This document shows, piece by piece, positions 11,400-27,488 of a stretch of 64,000 bases of DNA. The stretch covers positions 50,239,858-50,303,857 of the forward strand of contig CM042091.1 in assembly GCA_023512835.1 (NCBI GenBank), in the 5' to 3' direction. The translations under genes and the position numbers were made by a program. This stretch comes from Taxillus chinensis. Its lineage: Eukaryota > Streptophyta > Magnoliopsida > Santalales > Loranthaceae. How positions within the stretch are numbered: position 1 is the stretch's first letter; each line of letters opens with the position of its first letter. The notes beneath the pieces were generated by a model, which saw nothing but the letters and a program-made list of their open reading frames with translations, searched no databases and was not told the DNA's origin.

Positions 11400-11989
11400 G
11401 AAGATAAGGCAACTCCAGTGTCAAAATAGGAAGGTTAGTCGTTCTTCCAATTATCGGGTTAAACGTGCAGCTATTCATGCGTTAGAGGGTTTTATTAGAG
11501 ATGGATGGAGTGGGGACCCCGTCATGCCTAAGAACACCACGTTATTAGCCAGCCAAGAGACGAGCATTTCTAAGTGGTAGTGTTGAGTGACAGACACCGT
11601 TTCGTAACCGTCGCGGTAGTAGAATCACTGCTCAGATAAAGTATGTTCAATATCTGCCACGATGGTATCGAAAGCGATCAAGGGGTGATCTTCATGAAGT
11701 TTAGAGGTGTTTACGCATGATCTAGAGAAGATCACATTTGAAGGGAAGGGTGATGTTCGTGTGTTAAACGCAATAAAACTGGGTAATAGCAAGCACGAAA
11801 CATCATATTGAGCTAGTTGATAAGTGGATCGATACAAATATTTGGACCGACTATGGGGATGCATTATTTGGGCCAACTGATGGAATAGCGAGAAGCGCAT
11901 TATATTTGGTCGATGCTGTTGTTAATGGGAGTCCCTATCATTATACACTCCGAGTTGAAATTTGGTTTCGTAACTGTTATTTATTGTAA
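11400..11989 (+). pseudogene. Geminivirus-like coat protein / nuclear shuttle protein pseudogene
   Basis: Read across three frames, this stretch gives a basic, Arg/Lys-rich start (SRSSNYRVKRAA near 11440), a middle block (ESDQGVIFMKFRGVY near 11670; LEKITFEGKGDVRVLNA near 11720) and an end (SPYHYTLRVEIWFRNCYLL, stop 11987-11989). The final beta-strand pattern is that of geminivirus coat proteins and the related BV1 shuttle proteins; by eye I cannot tell which. The function in a virus would be encapsidation or nuclear shuttling of the DNA. Several frameshifts and stops mark it as dead. The movement protein-like frame starts 22 bases downstream on the same strand. Confidence 0.6.
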
Positions 11990-12011
11990 TGTAAGTTGAT
12001 TGTATTATGTA

Positions 12012-12283
12012 ATGGATATGGAGGATTTGCACACGGAAATAATTGAAGGTGTAAACTCGAATGATTATGAAGGAATTAAACTTTTGTTGCCAAATCTTTT
12101 TGATAAAGTTCATATGAAATTTAATGGTAAAAGTATGAAAATTGACAAGATACTTGTTCGATATTCTGCATTGTGTCCACCCATTGCTCAGGGGTATGTG
12201 CGATTGGATGTTATAAACAAGCGATTAGATGGTGCGGATGGGTTGTTGCAATCTGTATTATGTCATTCCAGGTGGATTGTCAT
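12012..12283 (+). pseudogene. Geminivirus-like movement protein pseudogene, 5' part
   Basis: An open frame from ATG 12012 (MDMEDLHTEIIEGVN), cut by the element B LTR at 12284. The block SMKIDKILVRYSALCPPIAQ followed by GYVRLDVINKRL has the residue pattern of begomovirus BC1 movement proteins, which carry viral DNA between cells through plasmodesmata. The rest of the gene resumes at 25187 after the retrotransposon, one base out of frame. There are no stops in this part. The assignment rests on motif pattern recognition; a profile search would settle it. Confidence 0.65.
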
Positions 12284-13786
12284 TGATAACGTGCATTTAT
12301 GCCGTTATCCTATACCCTATATAGGGTGTTTTAGCGTATGTTTTGTACCTATTTGCATGTTATTTTCGACATATTTGCTCTAACCCCTAGGAAGATCCGG
12401 TTTGGTGTATAGTGGTACTTTTTGAGTGTTTTTGGCAGGTTTTGGAGCAACCTTTTCCCACACACTTTGGCTAGATCACGCCATCAACTCACAAGGAAGC
12501 TATAGGAAGAAGATGGAAGCAAGATGAAGGCAAAATCAAGGTGCATGTGAAAAGCCTTCTCACGTGCATTCTCACGTTCAAGGATTTTATTGTATGGATG
12601 TCTTCTACAACTCAAGAGGAAGCTTTGGAGCAAATTTGAGTCGAATTGGAGCTGCACGCGAAAAGGGTCTTCTCACGTGCATTCTCACGTGCAAGCTTTG
12701 TTGCGCTCCAAATGATGTATTTTGTTGTTTTAATCATTTTCCTCTAAAGAACTGGGGTCAAATTTGGTGTAGTTTGAGTTTTATGTCGCCTAGAACGTCG
12801 ATTATCGTCACTAACCAAAACGATGTCGTTTTGGCCGCGACCACATTTATAATTAGGGCACACCTTTTGTAACCCTGATTTGGCCCACTAAAACCTATAA
12901 ATAGGGGTCTTTGGAGGCATTGTAAAGCATCTTGAGTGGGAGAATCTGATCTGAGTTCTGAAAAGAGCTATAGCCATTGCTAAAAGATCGGATTGTCCTT
13001 GGCAAGGAGTGAGTTTGGGCAGCAGACGCCGGAGTCTTTGGAGGCTGGAGTCCTGGTTCATCTTGGGGTCTTCCTTTATTGTCCTGGTACTGTAATCATG
13101 ATCTTTCCTATGATTGTTGTTGTTTTTGTCATGATTATGGAGTAGTCTTGTTAGTCTAGGGGAGCAATGTAGCCCCCAATAAATTGTAGTCGGTTTGGTT
13201 ATGGTTGTTCAATAAAATAGAATTCGGTTCTTGTTTAATTCACTTGCTTGAATGGAAATGCCTAGTTTATGCATAATTAGGTAATCTTAGCCCTTGTCTA
13301 GGGTGAAACACTAGTGAATTAGATTTAATATTGCATGATGGACCAAGTCCGCAACTATTAGATTGTTTGTCTACCTTGATCACTTTTATTCGCATGGACC
13401 AAATGGGATAAAAGCCTTAAATCTATCTTAGCATGGACCAAATGTAAGATAGGTAGGAGATAATCAACATGAACTTGAACTAGAACATAAATCAAGAACA
13501 AGAGCCATAACCAGATTAGTACAATCGATTGGGTGGTAAACATTGTGACCCTAGATGTCTATACCAACCGCTTGCCAACATTCGATTTAATATCTTTTTG
13601 TTCTAAATATTTGCACAACAAACATCAATTGTCCAGACATAAAATCAACTTGTTAGCTTAGTGCTTGCCGCTTAACAAGCATTAGCTACCTCCCTATGGG
13701 TTCGACAACCGGAGTCTTAATACTCCATTTTATTACTTGACCAGTGCACTTGCCGCAAAACCTTTAGACATAATTTATACGGGTTA
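12284..13786 (+). repeat. 5' LTR of element B
   Basis: It starts TGATAACGTGCATTTATGCC and ends TATACGGGTTA. U3 carries CACGTGCA-type motifs (12550-12700), a TATAAATA box lies at 12896-12903, and GGGGAGCAATGTAGCCCCC occurs near 13160 as in the LTR of A. The end at TTA instead of CA is fixed by comparison with the 3' copy and by the target duplication, so the termini are TG...TA, which is unusual. Confidence 0.9.
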
Positions 13787-13792
13787 AGTTTT

Positions 13793-13810
13793 TGGCGCCG
13801 TTGCCAGGGG
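13793..13810 (+). other. Primer-binding site (tRNA-Asp type)
   Basis: TGGCGCCGTTGCCAGGGG, six bases after the 5' LTR. It is complementary to the 3' end of plant tRNA-Asp with one mismatch (A for G), the usual Athila primer. It sets the lineage and the start of the internal region. Confidence 0.85.
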
Positions 13811-25872: not shown

Positions 25873-25949
25873 ACGTAAGTGATGTGTATTTATGTAATGT
25901 GATACAATGGAATACGAAAGGCTGATGTAATAAATATATTTCAACGCAA

Positions 25950-26354
25950 TCAATAAACATAAAATTTAACGTTACTGGTTTGTATTACATCATCGATATA
26001 TGGGTCAAATTCAGCCAATGCTTATGAGACACCTCTAATAGCATAATTAATGCTAACAACACCCACATTATCTAGATACTTTATTACATTAAACCGTATC
26101 GTAACAAGGAACATTAAGGAAGTCAGTGATCATCTAGTCTAGATCTTGAAGTTGATCCAACACTTGTGAATGCCAAGGGATCTACACAAGTTATGGTTGA
26201 AGCGGATCTAGATTGTGATAATATCCCATGGGTCCCTGGAAGGCTGTTGGCGGTGACTCAATACTTTGAAATATAAGGGATGCTTCACTAACCATATATA
26301 TTGTCCACAGTTAGCTTGCTCGAAAGTTATCATCTCGCCAGTCCTATTATCCAT
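25950..26354 (-). pseudogene. Geminivirus-like replication enhancer (REn/C3) pseudogene
   Basis: On the minus strand an ATG at 26354 opens a 134-codon frame with its stop at 25950-25952, close to the usual REn length. It begins MDNRTGEMITFEQANCGQYI and continues with KHPLYFKVLS and IRFNHNLCRSLGIHKC, then NVGVVSINYAIRG, all in register. There are no indels; about four in-frame stops (TAG, TAG, TGA, TAA) interrupt it. REn binds Rep and raises viral DNA replication. It overlaps the TrAP trace and lies just downstream of Rep, the standard C-sense arrangement of begomovirus-like genomes. Confidence 0.75.
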
Positions 26355-26389
26355 GTGTGGAGTATAAGATGAGAGATCCCGTCGTCAGG

Positions 26390-26560
26390 TTAACTAGTAT
26401 TGATCCTCGGTGTTAGTGTTATATAATGGAACTTGGATAAACACAAACAATGCGTTTTGGATGGTCTAGTCCTTTAAAGAAGCATTTTTAGGCTTGTTTA
26501 GGAAGTCTTTGTAACTGCATCCGTCTCTTGGATCGCAAAGCATGATTGAAGGGATCCCAC
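26390..26560 (-). pseudogene. Possible TrAP (C2) trace
   Basis: In a third minus-strand frame, between the Rep end and the REn start, short elements HRGS and DWRDD are spaced roughly like the zinc-finger end of geminivirus transcriptional activator proteins. The frame has several stops and no clear start. The position is right for C2, but the sequence support is thin. Confidence 0.3.
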
Positions 26561-27488
26561 CTTTGATGTGGACTGATCAGCCATATTTGCAGTTGGACTG
26601 CCAATCCTTTTAGGATCCTACAAGTTGTTTTCAATGCTTCAATTTTAAATATGCGAGTTCGACATCATCAATGATGTTATATTCAACGTCATTTGAGTAG
26701 CTACGTGGATTAAAATCCAGATGACCACATATATAATTATGTGGTTTTAATGATCTAGCCCACGCTGTTTTCCTAGTTCTACTGGGACCTTTAACAATTA
26801 AAGATAATGGACGATCAATATTCACATGCTTTCAAAATCCATTATGAAAACCTAGTTGCGCAACAGGATCCAGAACAAATTGATCACCCAACCATTGTTT
26901 TAGATCGTCTGGAATAATAAATGAATTGTGTTACCATTTTGGAGTAAGAATGACAGGCGAAGGAGCGAAGATCTTGTTAATATTAGATGAAATGTTATGA
27001 TATTGTAATAAAAAGGACTTTGGATCTTTATCTCATATGATTTGTAATGCCGCCTCTTTTGAGCTAATATCCAAAGCCTCAACATACACAACTTTAGTAG
27101 ATTGGGTACTACCGTTTGATGATCGCCGATTGATCTGGAATTTGTCATGTTCGATTGTGTCACCATCTTTGTGAATGTATGCATTGACGTCGGGACTTGA
27201 CTATGCCTCTTGAATGTGACAATGGAATGAGCTTGAGTGATGTGGAGATACATTGAAGTCAAAGATCGATTGATTGTTACACTGAAACTTACCCTCAAAT
27301 TAAATGAGAGCATGTATGTGGGGCTCTCCATTTTCATGAAACTCCCTGCAAACCTTAATATATTTCTTATCGATGGGTGTTTGAATATTTTGCAACTAAG
27401 ATAAGGCTTCGTGTTTAGAGAGAAAACAACAAAGGTATGTGATAAAAAATTTCTAGACAATTACCCGAAATCACCCGATGGATGGCAT
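26466..27488 (-). pseudogene. Geminivirus-like replication initiator (Rep/C1) pseudogene
   Basis: From ATG 27488 on the minus strand, the frame shows rolling-circle motif I (KFFITY), motif II (HIHALI, the metal-binding HxH), and motif III (VNAYIHKDGDT, with the nicking Tyr). After one frame change near 27000 comes the helicase: IVKGPSRTRKTAWARSL (Walker A, with Arg in place of the Gly before Lys), VEYNIIDDVE (Walker B) and CKYG...IKGGIPSI near the end. The total is 1023 bp, close to the normal Rep length, with no need for an intron. About six stops in the first 210 codons can each be a C-to-T change. Rep nicks the viral origin and drives rolling-circle replication; this copy cannot. Confidence 0.85.

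What the first reader, a model, noticed from the sequence alone, without database searches (positions are those of the whole stretch)
11400..27488. Endogenous geminivirus-like genome, nearly full length, split by a retrotransposon
Seen: Rep motifs I-III and Walker A/B on the minus strand (26466-27488), a 134-codon REn-like frame (25950-26354), a BC1-type movement protein pattern (12012-12283 plus 25187-25872) and a coat/shuttle protein-like end (to 11989). Known: geminivirus genomes are about 2.5-3.7 kb with virion-sense and complementary-sense genes converging. Inference: removing element B (12284-25186) leaves about 3.2 kb in one geminivirus-like order, so a whole genome unit was integrated. 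Most reported plant integrations that I know of are Rep-centred, so a copy that keeps a movement gene is valuable.
Basis: partly seen in the sequence, partly recalled or inferred. Interest (0 to 1): 0.95.

Follow-up and report, generated by a model that had tools for sequence, protein, structure and literature searches.

The report
Fossil plant virus with unusual genes
A decayed but nearly complete geminivirus genome, later split by a jumping gene, sits in this plant chromosome as one of many copies of an apparently undescribed virus lineage whose single DNA circle combined a begomovirus-like replication half with a movement gene that begomoviruses keep on a separate DNA.

Summary
Pieces searched apart hit Gemini_AL1, AL1_M, AL3, C4 and BL1; the coat-protein relic shows only against the family's own copies. 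The insert is a Ty3/gypsy-type LTR retrotransposon with 5-bp target repeats. The viral copy spans about 10790-27637, wider than reported.

It is not a lone insertion. The 521-Mb genome has 97 Rep, 64 movement-protein and 35 coat-protein matches in 66 places. The mapped copies are pieces of one unit of about 4.19 kb: V, CP and a BC1-type movement protein on one strand; REn, Rep and C4 on the other; a TAATATTAC hairpin about 55 nt before Rep where kept. No TrAP frame was seen in the one copy examined for it.

Endogenous geminiviruses are known, including one with CP and movement protein in Camellia. The combination here (citlodavirus-like virion side, begomovirus-like complementary side) appeared in nothing I read. 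One locus holds a head-to-tail array of 1.04-kb defective units.

The family bears on where the begomovirus DNA-B movement gene came from. Best reading: a genus-level monopartite lineage, integrated repeatedly; the window copy is an old, decayed member.

The parts
10790..11242 (+). left part of the viral intergenic region; homology begins at the loop of the replication-origin hairpin (unit 3744)
   Evidence: local alignment 74% identity, unit 3744-4190; blastn block from unit 3756 at window 10807
11243..11550 (+). relic of a small virion-sense ORF (V, about 103 aa in another copy; no Pfam match)
   Evidence: tblastn with the family ORF, 84% and 66% identity; no Pfam family at E up to 1 for that ORF
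11495..11986 (+). coat-protein relic, about 92 codons missing in the middle
   Evidence: tblastn with the family CP, 77-88%; the family CP matches PF00844 at E 1.9e-22; no Pfam hit for the window pieces or for the window
12000..12283 (+). first part of the BC1-type movement protein
   Evidence: PF00845 E 3e-7, profile 12-73; tblastn 84% over 82 codons
12279..12283 (.). target-site duplication GTCAT, left copy
   Evidence: script
12284..25181 (+). Ty3/gypsy-type LTR retrotransposon inserted in the movement gene (LTRs 12284-13786 and 23676-25181, K2P 0.0176)
   Evidence: LTR comparison, repeats, RVT_1, RNase H, integrase core in that order
25182..25186 (.). target-site duplication GTCAT, right copy
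   Evidence: script
25187..25869 (+). rest of the BC1-type movement protein, with stops
   Evidence: PF00845 E 7.4e-10, profile 87-134; tblastn 71% and 66%
25953..26366 (-). replication enhancer (REn/AL3) relic, 4 internal stops
   Evidence: PF01407 E 4e-8 and 2.9e-6; tblastn 67% over 138 codons
26403..27558 (-). replication-associated protein (Rep/AL1) relic, 13 stop cells
   Evidence: PF00799 and PF08283; tblastn 72%; stop cells; end of homology
27101..27313 (-). C4 relic, overlapping Rep in another frame
   Evidence: PF01492 E 1.6e-8, residues 50-120 of the 26900-27460 frame
27559..27637 (.). probable remnant of the intergenic region up to the origin hairpin; no TAATATTAC left
   Evidence: local alignment 61%, unit 3692-3764, contiguous with Rep but weak against shuffles; no exact nonanucleotide in the window

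Best explanation
The window holds one old, inactive copy of an endogenous geminivirus family. The ancestral virus had one DNA circle of about 4.19 kb: V, coat protein and a BC1-type movement protein on the virion strand; REn, Rep and C4 on the complementary strand; and an ordinary geminivirus origin hairpin between Rep and V. It replicated by rolling circle (inferred from Rep, origin and head-to-tail arrays). Linear or multimeric viral DNA was joined to chromosomes many times at arbitrary break points (variable ends are shown; the joining mechanism is inferred). The window copy was opened near the origin loop, lost codons of CP, gained stops and lost CpG sites (shown; methylation as the cause is inferred), and was then hit by an LTR retrotransposon about 0.7-1.3 million years ago (LTR divergence shown; rates recalled). 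No present function is proposed for this copy.
For: Pfam hits for five viral models in collinear order. Related copies: L005 gives CP (two pieces just under the cut-off), MP and REn plus a sub-cut-off Rep central match; L007 gives CP and REn; L001 gives CP just under the cut-off. Piecewise maps of 20 loci show the same order where a copy is unbroken, among many truncated, inverted or rearranged ones. 31 of 35 CP matches have MP within 1.5 kb downstream on the same strand; 29 of 64 MP matches have Rep on the opposite strand within 3.5 kb, against 5 of 64 on the same strand. 14 of 19 TAATATTAC matches in 20 loci lie in 11-12 bp stems. Neighbouring units in a locus are 98.3-99.4% identical over MP in five comparisons; six loci, the window included, differ by 2.8-18.5% from the comparison pieces. 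dN/dS below 1 in 34 of 36 CP, 51 of 52 MP, 25 of 26 REn and 36 of 39 Rep comparisons; window Rep 0.29 with 13 stop cells. CpG lost 99, gained 31 in the window copy. LTR and target-site data.
Against: The right end of the window copy is weak: alignment scores 24 (120-nt query) and 23 (62-nt query); 200 shuffles of the 62-nt query reach 30 with mean 18, so it rests on contiguity with Rep. Only L011 (both ends) and the window's left end fall at the origin, 3 of 33 outer ends counted by hand, so origin-linked integration is not general. 35 of 64 MP matches have no Rep on the opposite strand in range: many copies are fragments. CP could have served as a shuttle protein, since PF00844 covers both. 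The window's own coat relic matches no Pfam model of that family. TrAP absence rests on the ORF list of one copy; the genome search for PF01440 did not complete. 77 short or under-60% alignments were dropped before the dN/dS counts, and frameshifted stretches read in the wrong frame can raise dN.
Confidence: 0.93

Rival explanations
1. The family is a geminivirus-derived transposable element that moves within the genome using Rep, rather than repeated integration of an infecting virus.
For: 66 places on nine contigs; origins and open Rep frames kept in some copies; L011 opens at the origin loop at both ends.
Against: Outer ends are scattered over the unit in the 20 loci mapped, without fixed termini; CP and MP are retained and differ between copies mostly with dN/dS below 1, as expected of genes used for encapsidation and movement.
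Confidence: 0.08
2. The unit is an old recombinant: a citlodavirus-like virus supplied V, CP and MP, and a begomovirus- or topocuvirus-like virus supplied REn, Rep and C4.
For: Virion side resembles the citlodavirus order (CP and a begomovirus-sized MP; PMC11053556 passages); Rep is 57-64% identical to the listed begomovirus and topocuvirus Reps.
Against: Rep sits on a long branch of its own (0.41 changes per column); MP has no found relative above 50% apart from one 96% record, so any recombination is not recent. Not excluded, and compatible with the best explanation.
Confidence: 0.45
3. The virus was bipartite: the unit is one component and a second, with its own CP or shuttle gene, exists.
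For: A BC1-type MP and a CP/BR1-type protein are DNA-B genes in begomoviruses (PMC8744271). 4 of 35 CP-family matches lack an MP neighbour.
Against: Rep and MP are in the same unit; 31 of 35 CP-family matches belong to it.
Confidence: 0.07
4. The viral blocks are assembly contamination by an infecting virus.
For: None found.
Against: Stops, CpG loss and a nested LTR element with target-site duplication inside the viral sequence.
Confidence: 0.01

Closest known systems
Camellia sinensis endogenous geminivirus 'integron' (Clade 3, 4.6 kb; PMC7758297 section 3.7)
   Same: endogenous, multi-copy, CP plus putative movement protein plus Rep plus TAATATTAC origin in a unit above 4 kb
   Different: [quoted passage not shown] here Rep is one frame near begomoviruses, with REn and C4. 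Sequences were not compared here and its supplements were not seen.
Citlodavirus (e.g. apiscitlodal virus, 3918 nt; PMC11053556 passages)
   Same: monopartite, large; CP and a begomovirus-sized MP on the virion strand; TAATATTAC
   Different: six genes: repA, spliced rep, cp, mp, v2, v3; no REn or C4 among them
Begomovirus, bipartite (PMC8744271)
   Same: Rep about 61% identical, REn, C4, BC1-type MP, CP family, TAATATTAC
   Different: MP on a separate DNA-B, complementary strand; TrAP present; components 2.5-2.6 kb
Olea europaea geminivirus (PMC8540022, PMC8000510 passages)
   Same: BC1-related MP in virion sense; REn; CP
   Different: bipartite with MP on DNA-B; TrAP present; no AC4
Dioscorea EGV1/EGV2 (PMC5014472 section 3.2)
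   Same: endogenous units with Rep 59% and REn 57% (EGV1) to begomoviruses; EGV1 with origin hairpin; no TrAP found
   Different: about 2.1-2.9 kb units in which no CP was detected; no movement gene named in the section read (PMC7758297 section 3.3 notes potential nuclear shuttle proteins in D. alata)
Macadamia endogenous geminiviral element (PMC8626973, one section)
   Same: decayed, partly duplicated, Rep, AC3, AC4, AV1, TAATATTAC
   Different: AC2 reported; no movement gene named in the section read; 3440-bp unit

Membership tests
Geminiviridae | Rep with Gemini_AL1 and AL1_M domains | tested here: met
   window pieces, part of them under the curated cut-off; family Rep E 3.1e-49 and 3.5e-19
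Geminiviridae | coat protein of the geminivirus family | tested here: met
   family CP PF00844 E 1.9e-22; window relic only by tblastn, not by Pfam
Geminiviridae | TAATATTAC in an origin hairpin between diverging genes | tested here: met
   14 of 19 matches in 11-12 bp stems, in 11 of 20 loci; not in the window copy
Geminiviridae | twinned particles, episomal replication | not testable with these tools
   sequence only
Citlodavirus | CP and begomovirus-sized MP on the virion strand | tested here: met
Citlodavirus | RepA plus spliced Rep, no REn | tested here: not met
   single 366-codon Rep frame and a 134-aa REn in L012; REn match in L005 and L007
Begomovirus | Rep, REn and C4 on the complementary strand | tested here: met
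Begomovirus | TrAP (C2) | tested here: inconclusive
   in L012 the only further complementary frame between REn and the 3' end of Rep has 48 codons and no Pfam match; genome search PF01440 unanswered
Begomovirus | component size 2.5-2.6 kb, BC1 on a separate DNA-B | tested here: not met
   unit about 4.19 kb with MP inside
Begomovirus | Rep inside the begomovirus clade | tested here: inconclusive
   20-row tree: own branch outside the sampled begomoviruses other than sweepoviruses, which group with TPCTV (96/94); sweepoviruses fall elsewhere; deep forks weak; no citlodavirus or mastrevirus rows
Endogenous geminivirus (EGV) | viral sequence in chromosomal DNA and decayed | tested here: met
   stops, nested LTR insertion with target duplication; fixation in the species not tested
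Ty3/gypsy LTR retrotransposon (12284-25181) | LTRs, target duplication, RT-RNase H-integrase order | tested here: met

The most novel reading that the evidence does not exclude
The family records an unrecognised, possibly extinct genus whose single circle joined a BC1-type movement gene to a begomovirus-like replication half. If its MP and Rep branch near the base of begomovirus BC1 and Rep, it represents the kind of monopartite ancestor from which DNA-B took its movement gene, a gene said to come from an unknown source (PMC2858149, passages).
Probability: 0.25. Interest if true: 0.9.

Novelty: new variant of a known kind. Interest (0 to 1): 0.72.

Why it matters
Endogenous geminiviruses are known, but a broad survey could assemble only one complete gene set (PMC7758297 section 3.7). 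This family preserves, in dozens of chromosomal copies, a gene combination that I found in no genus described in the papers read. It makes a long-standing question testable: whether the begomovirus DNA-B movement gene came from a monopartite relative that already carried it beside CP. The array of 1.04-kb units looks like a chromosomal record of a defective viral circle replicating by rolling circle.

Tried and rejected
Tried without result: nonanucleotide in the window (none exact); relatives of MP, Rep, the MP alignment and P0003 in viral contigs (pattern matches, none confirmed); Rfam on the window at gathering scores (0 matches); PDB search with one Rep piece (one irrelevant hit at E 0.65); Pfam on the small V ORF (none at E up to 1); host identity (not settled; unnamed, 520.9 Mb, matches only on nine large contigs). 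The protein searches for MP and CP reach only relatives sharing exact words, so few hits do not show that relatives are absent. The tandem-repeat program gave 0 rows on L037; its longest period is 500, so it could not see the 1.04-kb array.

Rejected: transposon with fixed ends; lone insertion; unrelated families in the four blocks.

Literature statement: that the gene combination was not found in print rests on searches in an open-licence library and on what I saw of the ten papers named in the report; subscription journals are largely missing, and the supplementary tables of PMC7758297, which list domains per locus, were not seen. Names of genera for database rows (topocuvirus, turncurtovirus, sweepovirus), substitution rates and the Ty3/gypsy gene order are recalled.
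Full report
CHECK OF THE OBSERVATION. Of ten complementary-strand pieces, six matched a geminivirus model at E below 1e-3 (four Rep, two REn; three of the six over Pfam's cut-off), one gave E 0.23 and three nothing. A frame overlapping Rep matches C4 PF01492. Of ten virion-strand pieces two matched, both PF00845, on the two sides of the insert at profile positions 12-73 and 87-134. 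The coat pieces gave no geminivirus hit, nor is the window listed for PF00844 in the genome scan, but they are recognised by the coat protein of related copies, which itself matches PF00844 at E 1.9e-22.

THE INSERT. Two LTRs (1503 and 1506 nt, starting TGATAA and ending GGGTTA) differ by 22 transitions and 4 transversions over 1501 aligned positions, K2P 0.0176; GTCAT stands at both sides. RVT_1 (just under its cut-off), RNase H and integrase core follow in that order. With recalled rates of 7e-9 and 1.3e-8 per site per year this gives about 1.3 and 0.7 million years. The virus was there before.

EXTENT. Homology to the family starts at about 10790 (unit coordinate 3744; 3756 by blastn) and Rep homology ends at 27558 (unit 3691), with a weak further stretch to 27637. 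The nonanucleotide of the comparison copy lies at unit 3747-3755. So the copy runs almost once round a nominal 4190-nt unit and was opened near the origin loop. The right-hand stretch scores 24 (120-nt query) and 23 (62-nt query), while 200 shuffles of the 62-nt query reach 30 with mean 18; that end is inferred from contiguity.

THE FAMILY. The window's own genome (520.9 Mb, 264 contigs) gives 64 matches to PF00845, 97 to PF00799 and 35 to PF00844, 4 of them under the cut-off; the tool calls such counts lower bounds, and none of 14 control genomes rang. The PF00845 matches reach only positions 12-178 of the 276-position model, so the later part of this movement protein is divergent. Merged within 20 kb the matches make 66 places on C1-C9. 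31 of 35 CP matches are followed by MP on the same strand within 1.5 kb; 29 of 64 MP matches are followed within 3.5 kb by Rep on the opposite strand, against 5 on the same strand. Maps of 20 loci show the order V-CP-MP, then REn-Rep reversed, then an intergenic region, wherever a copy is unbroken; many copies are truncated, inverted or rearranged. In L010, L013, L017 and L025 about 500 nt separate the Rep frame from the next V frame. TAATATTAC occurs 19 times in these 20 loci, 14 times in an 11-12 bp stem, in 11 loci; in the five copies where I compared positions (L010, L012, L013, L017, L025) it lies 54-56 nt from the 5' end of the Rep stop-to-stop frame. The frame list of L012 shows Rep 366 aa, REn 134 aa, C4 79 aa and, between REn and the 3' part of Rep, no further complementary frame above 48 codons, so TrAP is probably absent.

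HOW COPIES AROSE. Outer ends are scattered: of 33 that I counted by hand, leaving out those at locus edges, three (both ends of L011, the window's left end) lie at the origin loop. Neighbouring units in one locus are 98.3-99.4% identical over MP (four loci, five comparisons), whereas six loci differ from the comparison pieces by 2.8-18.5%. Against one comparison copy per gene, dN/dS is below 1 in 34 of 36 CP, 51 of 52 MP, 25 of 26 REn, 36 of 39 Rep and 14 of 18 V comparisons, medians 0.46, 0.37, 0.43, 0.48 and 0.78 (77 short or under-60% alignments dropped; V overlaps CP). Seven CP, MP, REn or Rep comparisons are at or above 1, some nearly identical, some decayed. This fits several integrations of a virus that had diversified under selection. 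For the window copy Rep has dS 0.51, dN 0.147 and 13 stop cells; CpG losses exceed gains 99 to 31, which fits methylation-driven decay; L026 shows the same (142 to 56), the four less diverged loci do not.

A DEFECTIVE-CIRCLE FOSSIL. L037 holds at least five whole head-to-tail units of 1043-1046 nt, each joining unit 2916-3691 (5' part of Rep) to 3692-3958 (origin region) at the same junction, next to a longer copy. The five units are 97.9-98.8% identical in all pairs. The near-equal distances suggest one integrated rolling-circle concatemer of a deleted circle; no tree test of stepwise duplication was made.

RELATIVES. Rep: of 946 hits the best 120 were listed; begomoviruses lead at about 61%, tomato pseudo-curly top virus has 62% (63 and 64% in the seven-row alignment). 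In a 20-row tree of 18 chosen database rows plus two family rows the family forms its own long branch outside the sampled non-sweepovirus begomoviruses plus TPCTV (96/94), with weak deep forks; no citlodavirus or mastrevirus rows were included. MP: three hits only, one 96% and two unnamed metagenomic proteins at 45 and 47%. CP: one hit at 95%. Four scans of viral contigs confirmed none.

COMPARISON WITH WHAT IS KNOWN. PMC7758297 (abstract, sections 3.3, 3.4, 3.7 and passages) reports Rep homologues in 42 angiosperm species, other geminivirus domains near Rep in 1,601 of 2,165 loci, BC1-labelled transcripts in Camellia, a Dioscorea clade basal to begomoviruses, and a 4.6-kb Camellia unit with CP, putative movement protein, repA and repB. 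PMC5014472 (section 3.2 and passages): Dioscorea units with Rep and REn, no CP or TrAP detected. PMC8626973 (one section and passages): macadamia. PMC11053556 (passages): citlodaviruses carry CP and a begomovirus-sized MP in virion sense with RepA and spliced Rep, and have been postulated as intermediates towards bipartite begomoviruses. PMC8540022 and PMC8000510 (passages): olive geminivirus, bipartite, MP in virion sense. PMC8744271 (whole text): family and begomovirus organisation. PMC2858149 (passages): DNA-B held to come from duplication of DNA-A plus a movement gene of unknown source, or proposed as a captured satellite. PMC8705360 and PMC10219291 (passages) added nothing decisive. In what I saw of these ten papers, none describes a monopartite unit with BC1-type MP plus REn plus C4 plus one-frame Rep.

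VERDICT. The family descends from a geminivirus. It fails defining features of both Citlodavirus (spliced Rep, no REn) and Begomovirus (small component, BC1 on DNA-B), so it is filed in neither.

Noticed in passing
L037 474-5695 (G000:C4:41482800-41492000): Head-to-tail array of at least five 1.04-kb units, each 5' Rep plus origin region with one common deletion junction: looks like an integrated rolling-circle concatemer of a defective geminivirus circle.
   Followed up: partly
window 37165-41602: A second Ty3/gypsy-like element: G-patch frame, then RT, RNase H, RVT_3 and integrase pieces.
   Followed up: no
window 58001-62000: GC rises to 0.61 and 0.55; the long frames scanned there have no Pfam match at E 1e-3. 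Possibly host gene exons.
   Followed up: no
L013 and L018: Units joined in opposite orientation or as inverted partial units, suggesting joining of several linear viral fragments before or during integration.
   Followed up: no
P0003 (protein search result): Unnamed 286-aa BC1-type movement protein, 47% identical to the family, longest contig 3688 nt: perhaps another large monopartite geminivirus.
   Followed up: partly
G000:C5:16442416 and G000:C4:22201866: Two of the four coat-protein matches without a movement-protein neighbour downstream on the same strand; not fetched.
   Followed up: no
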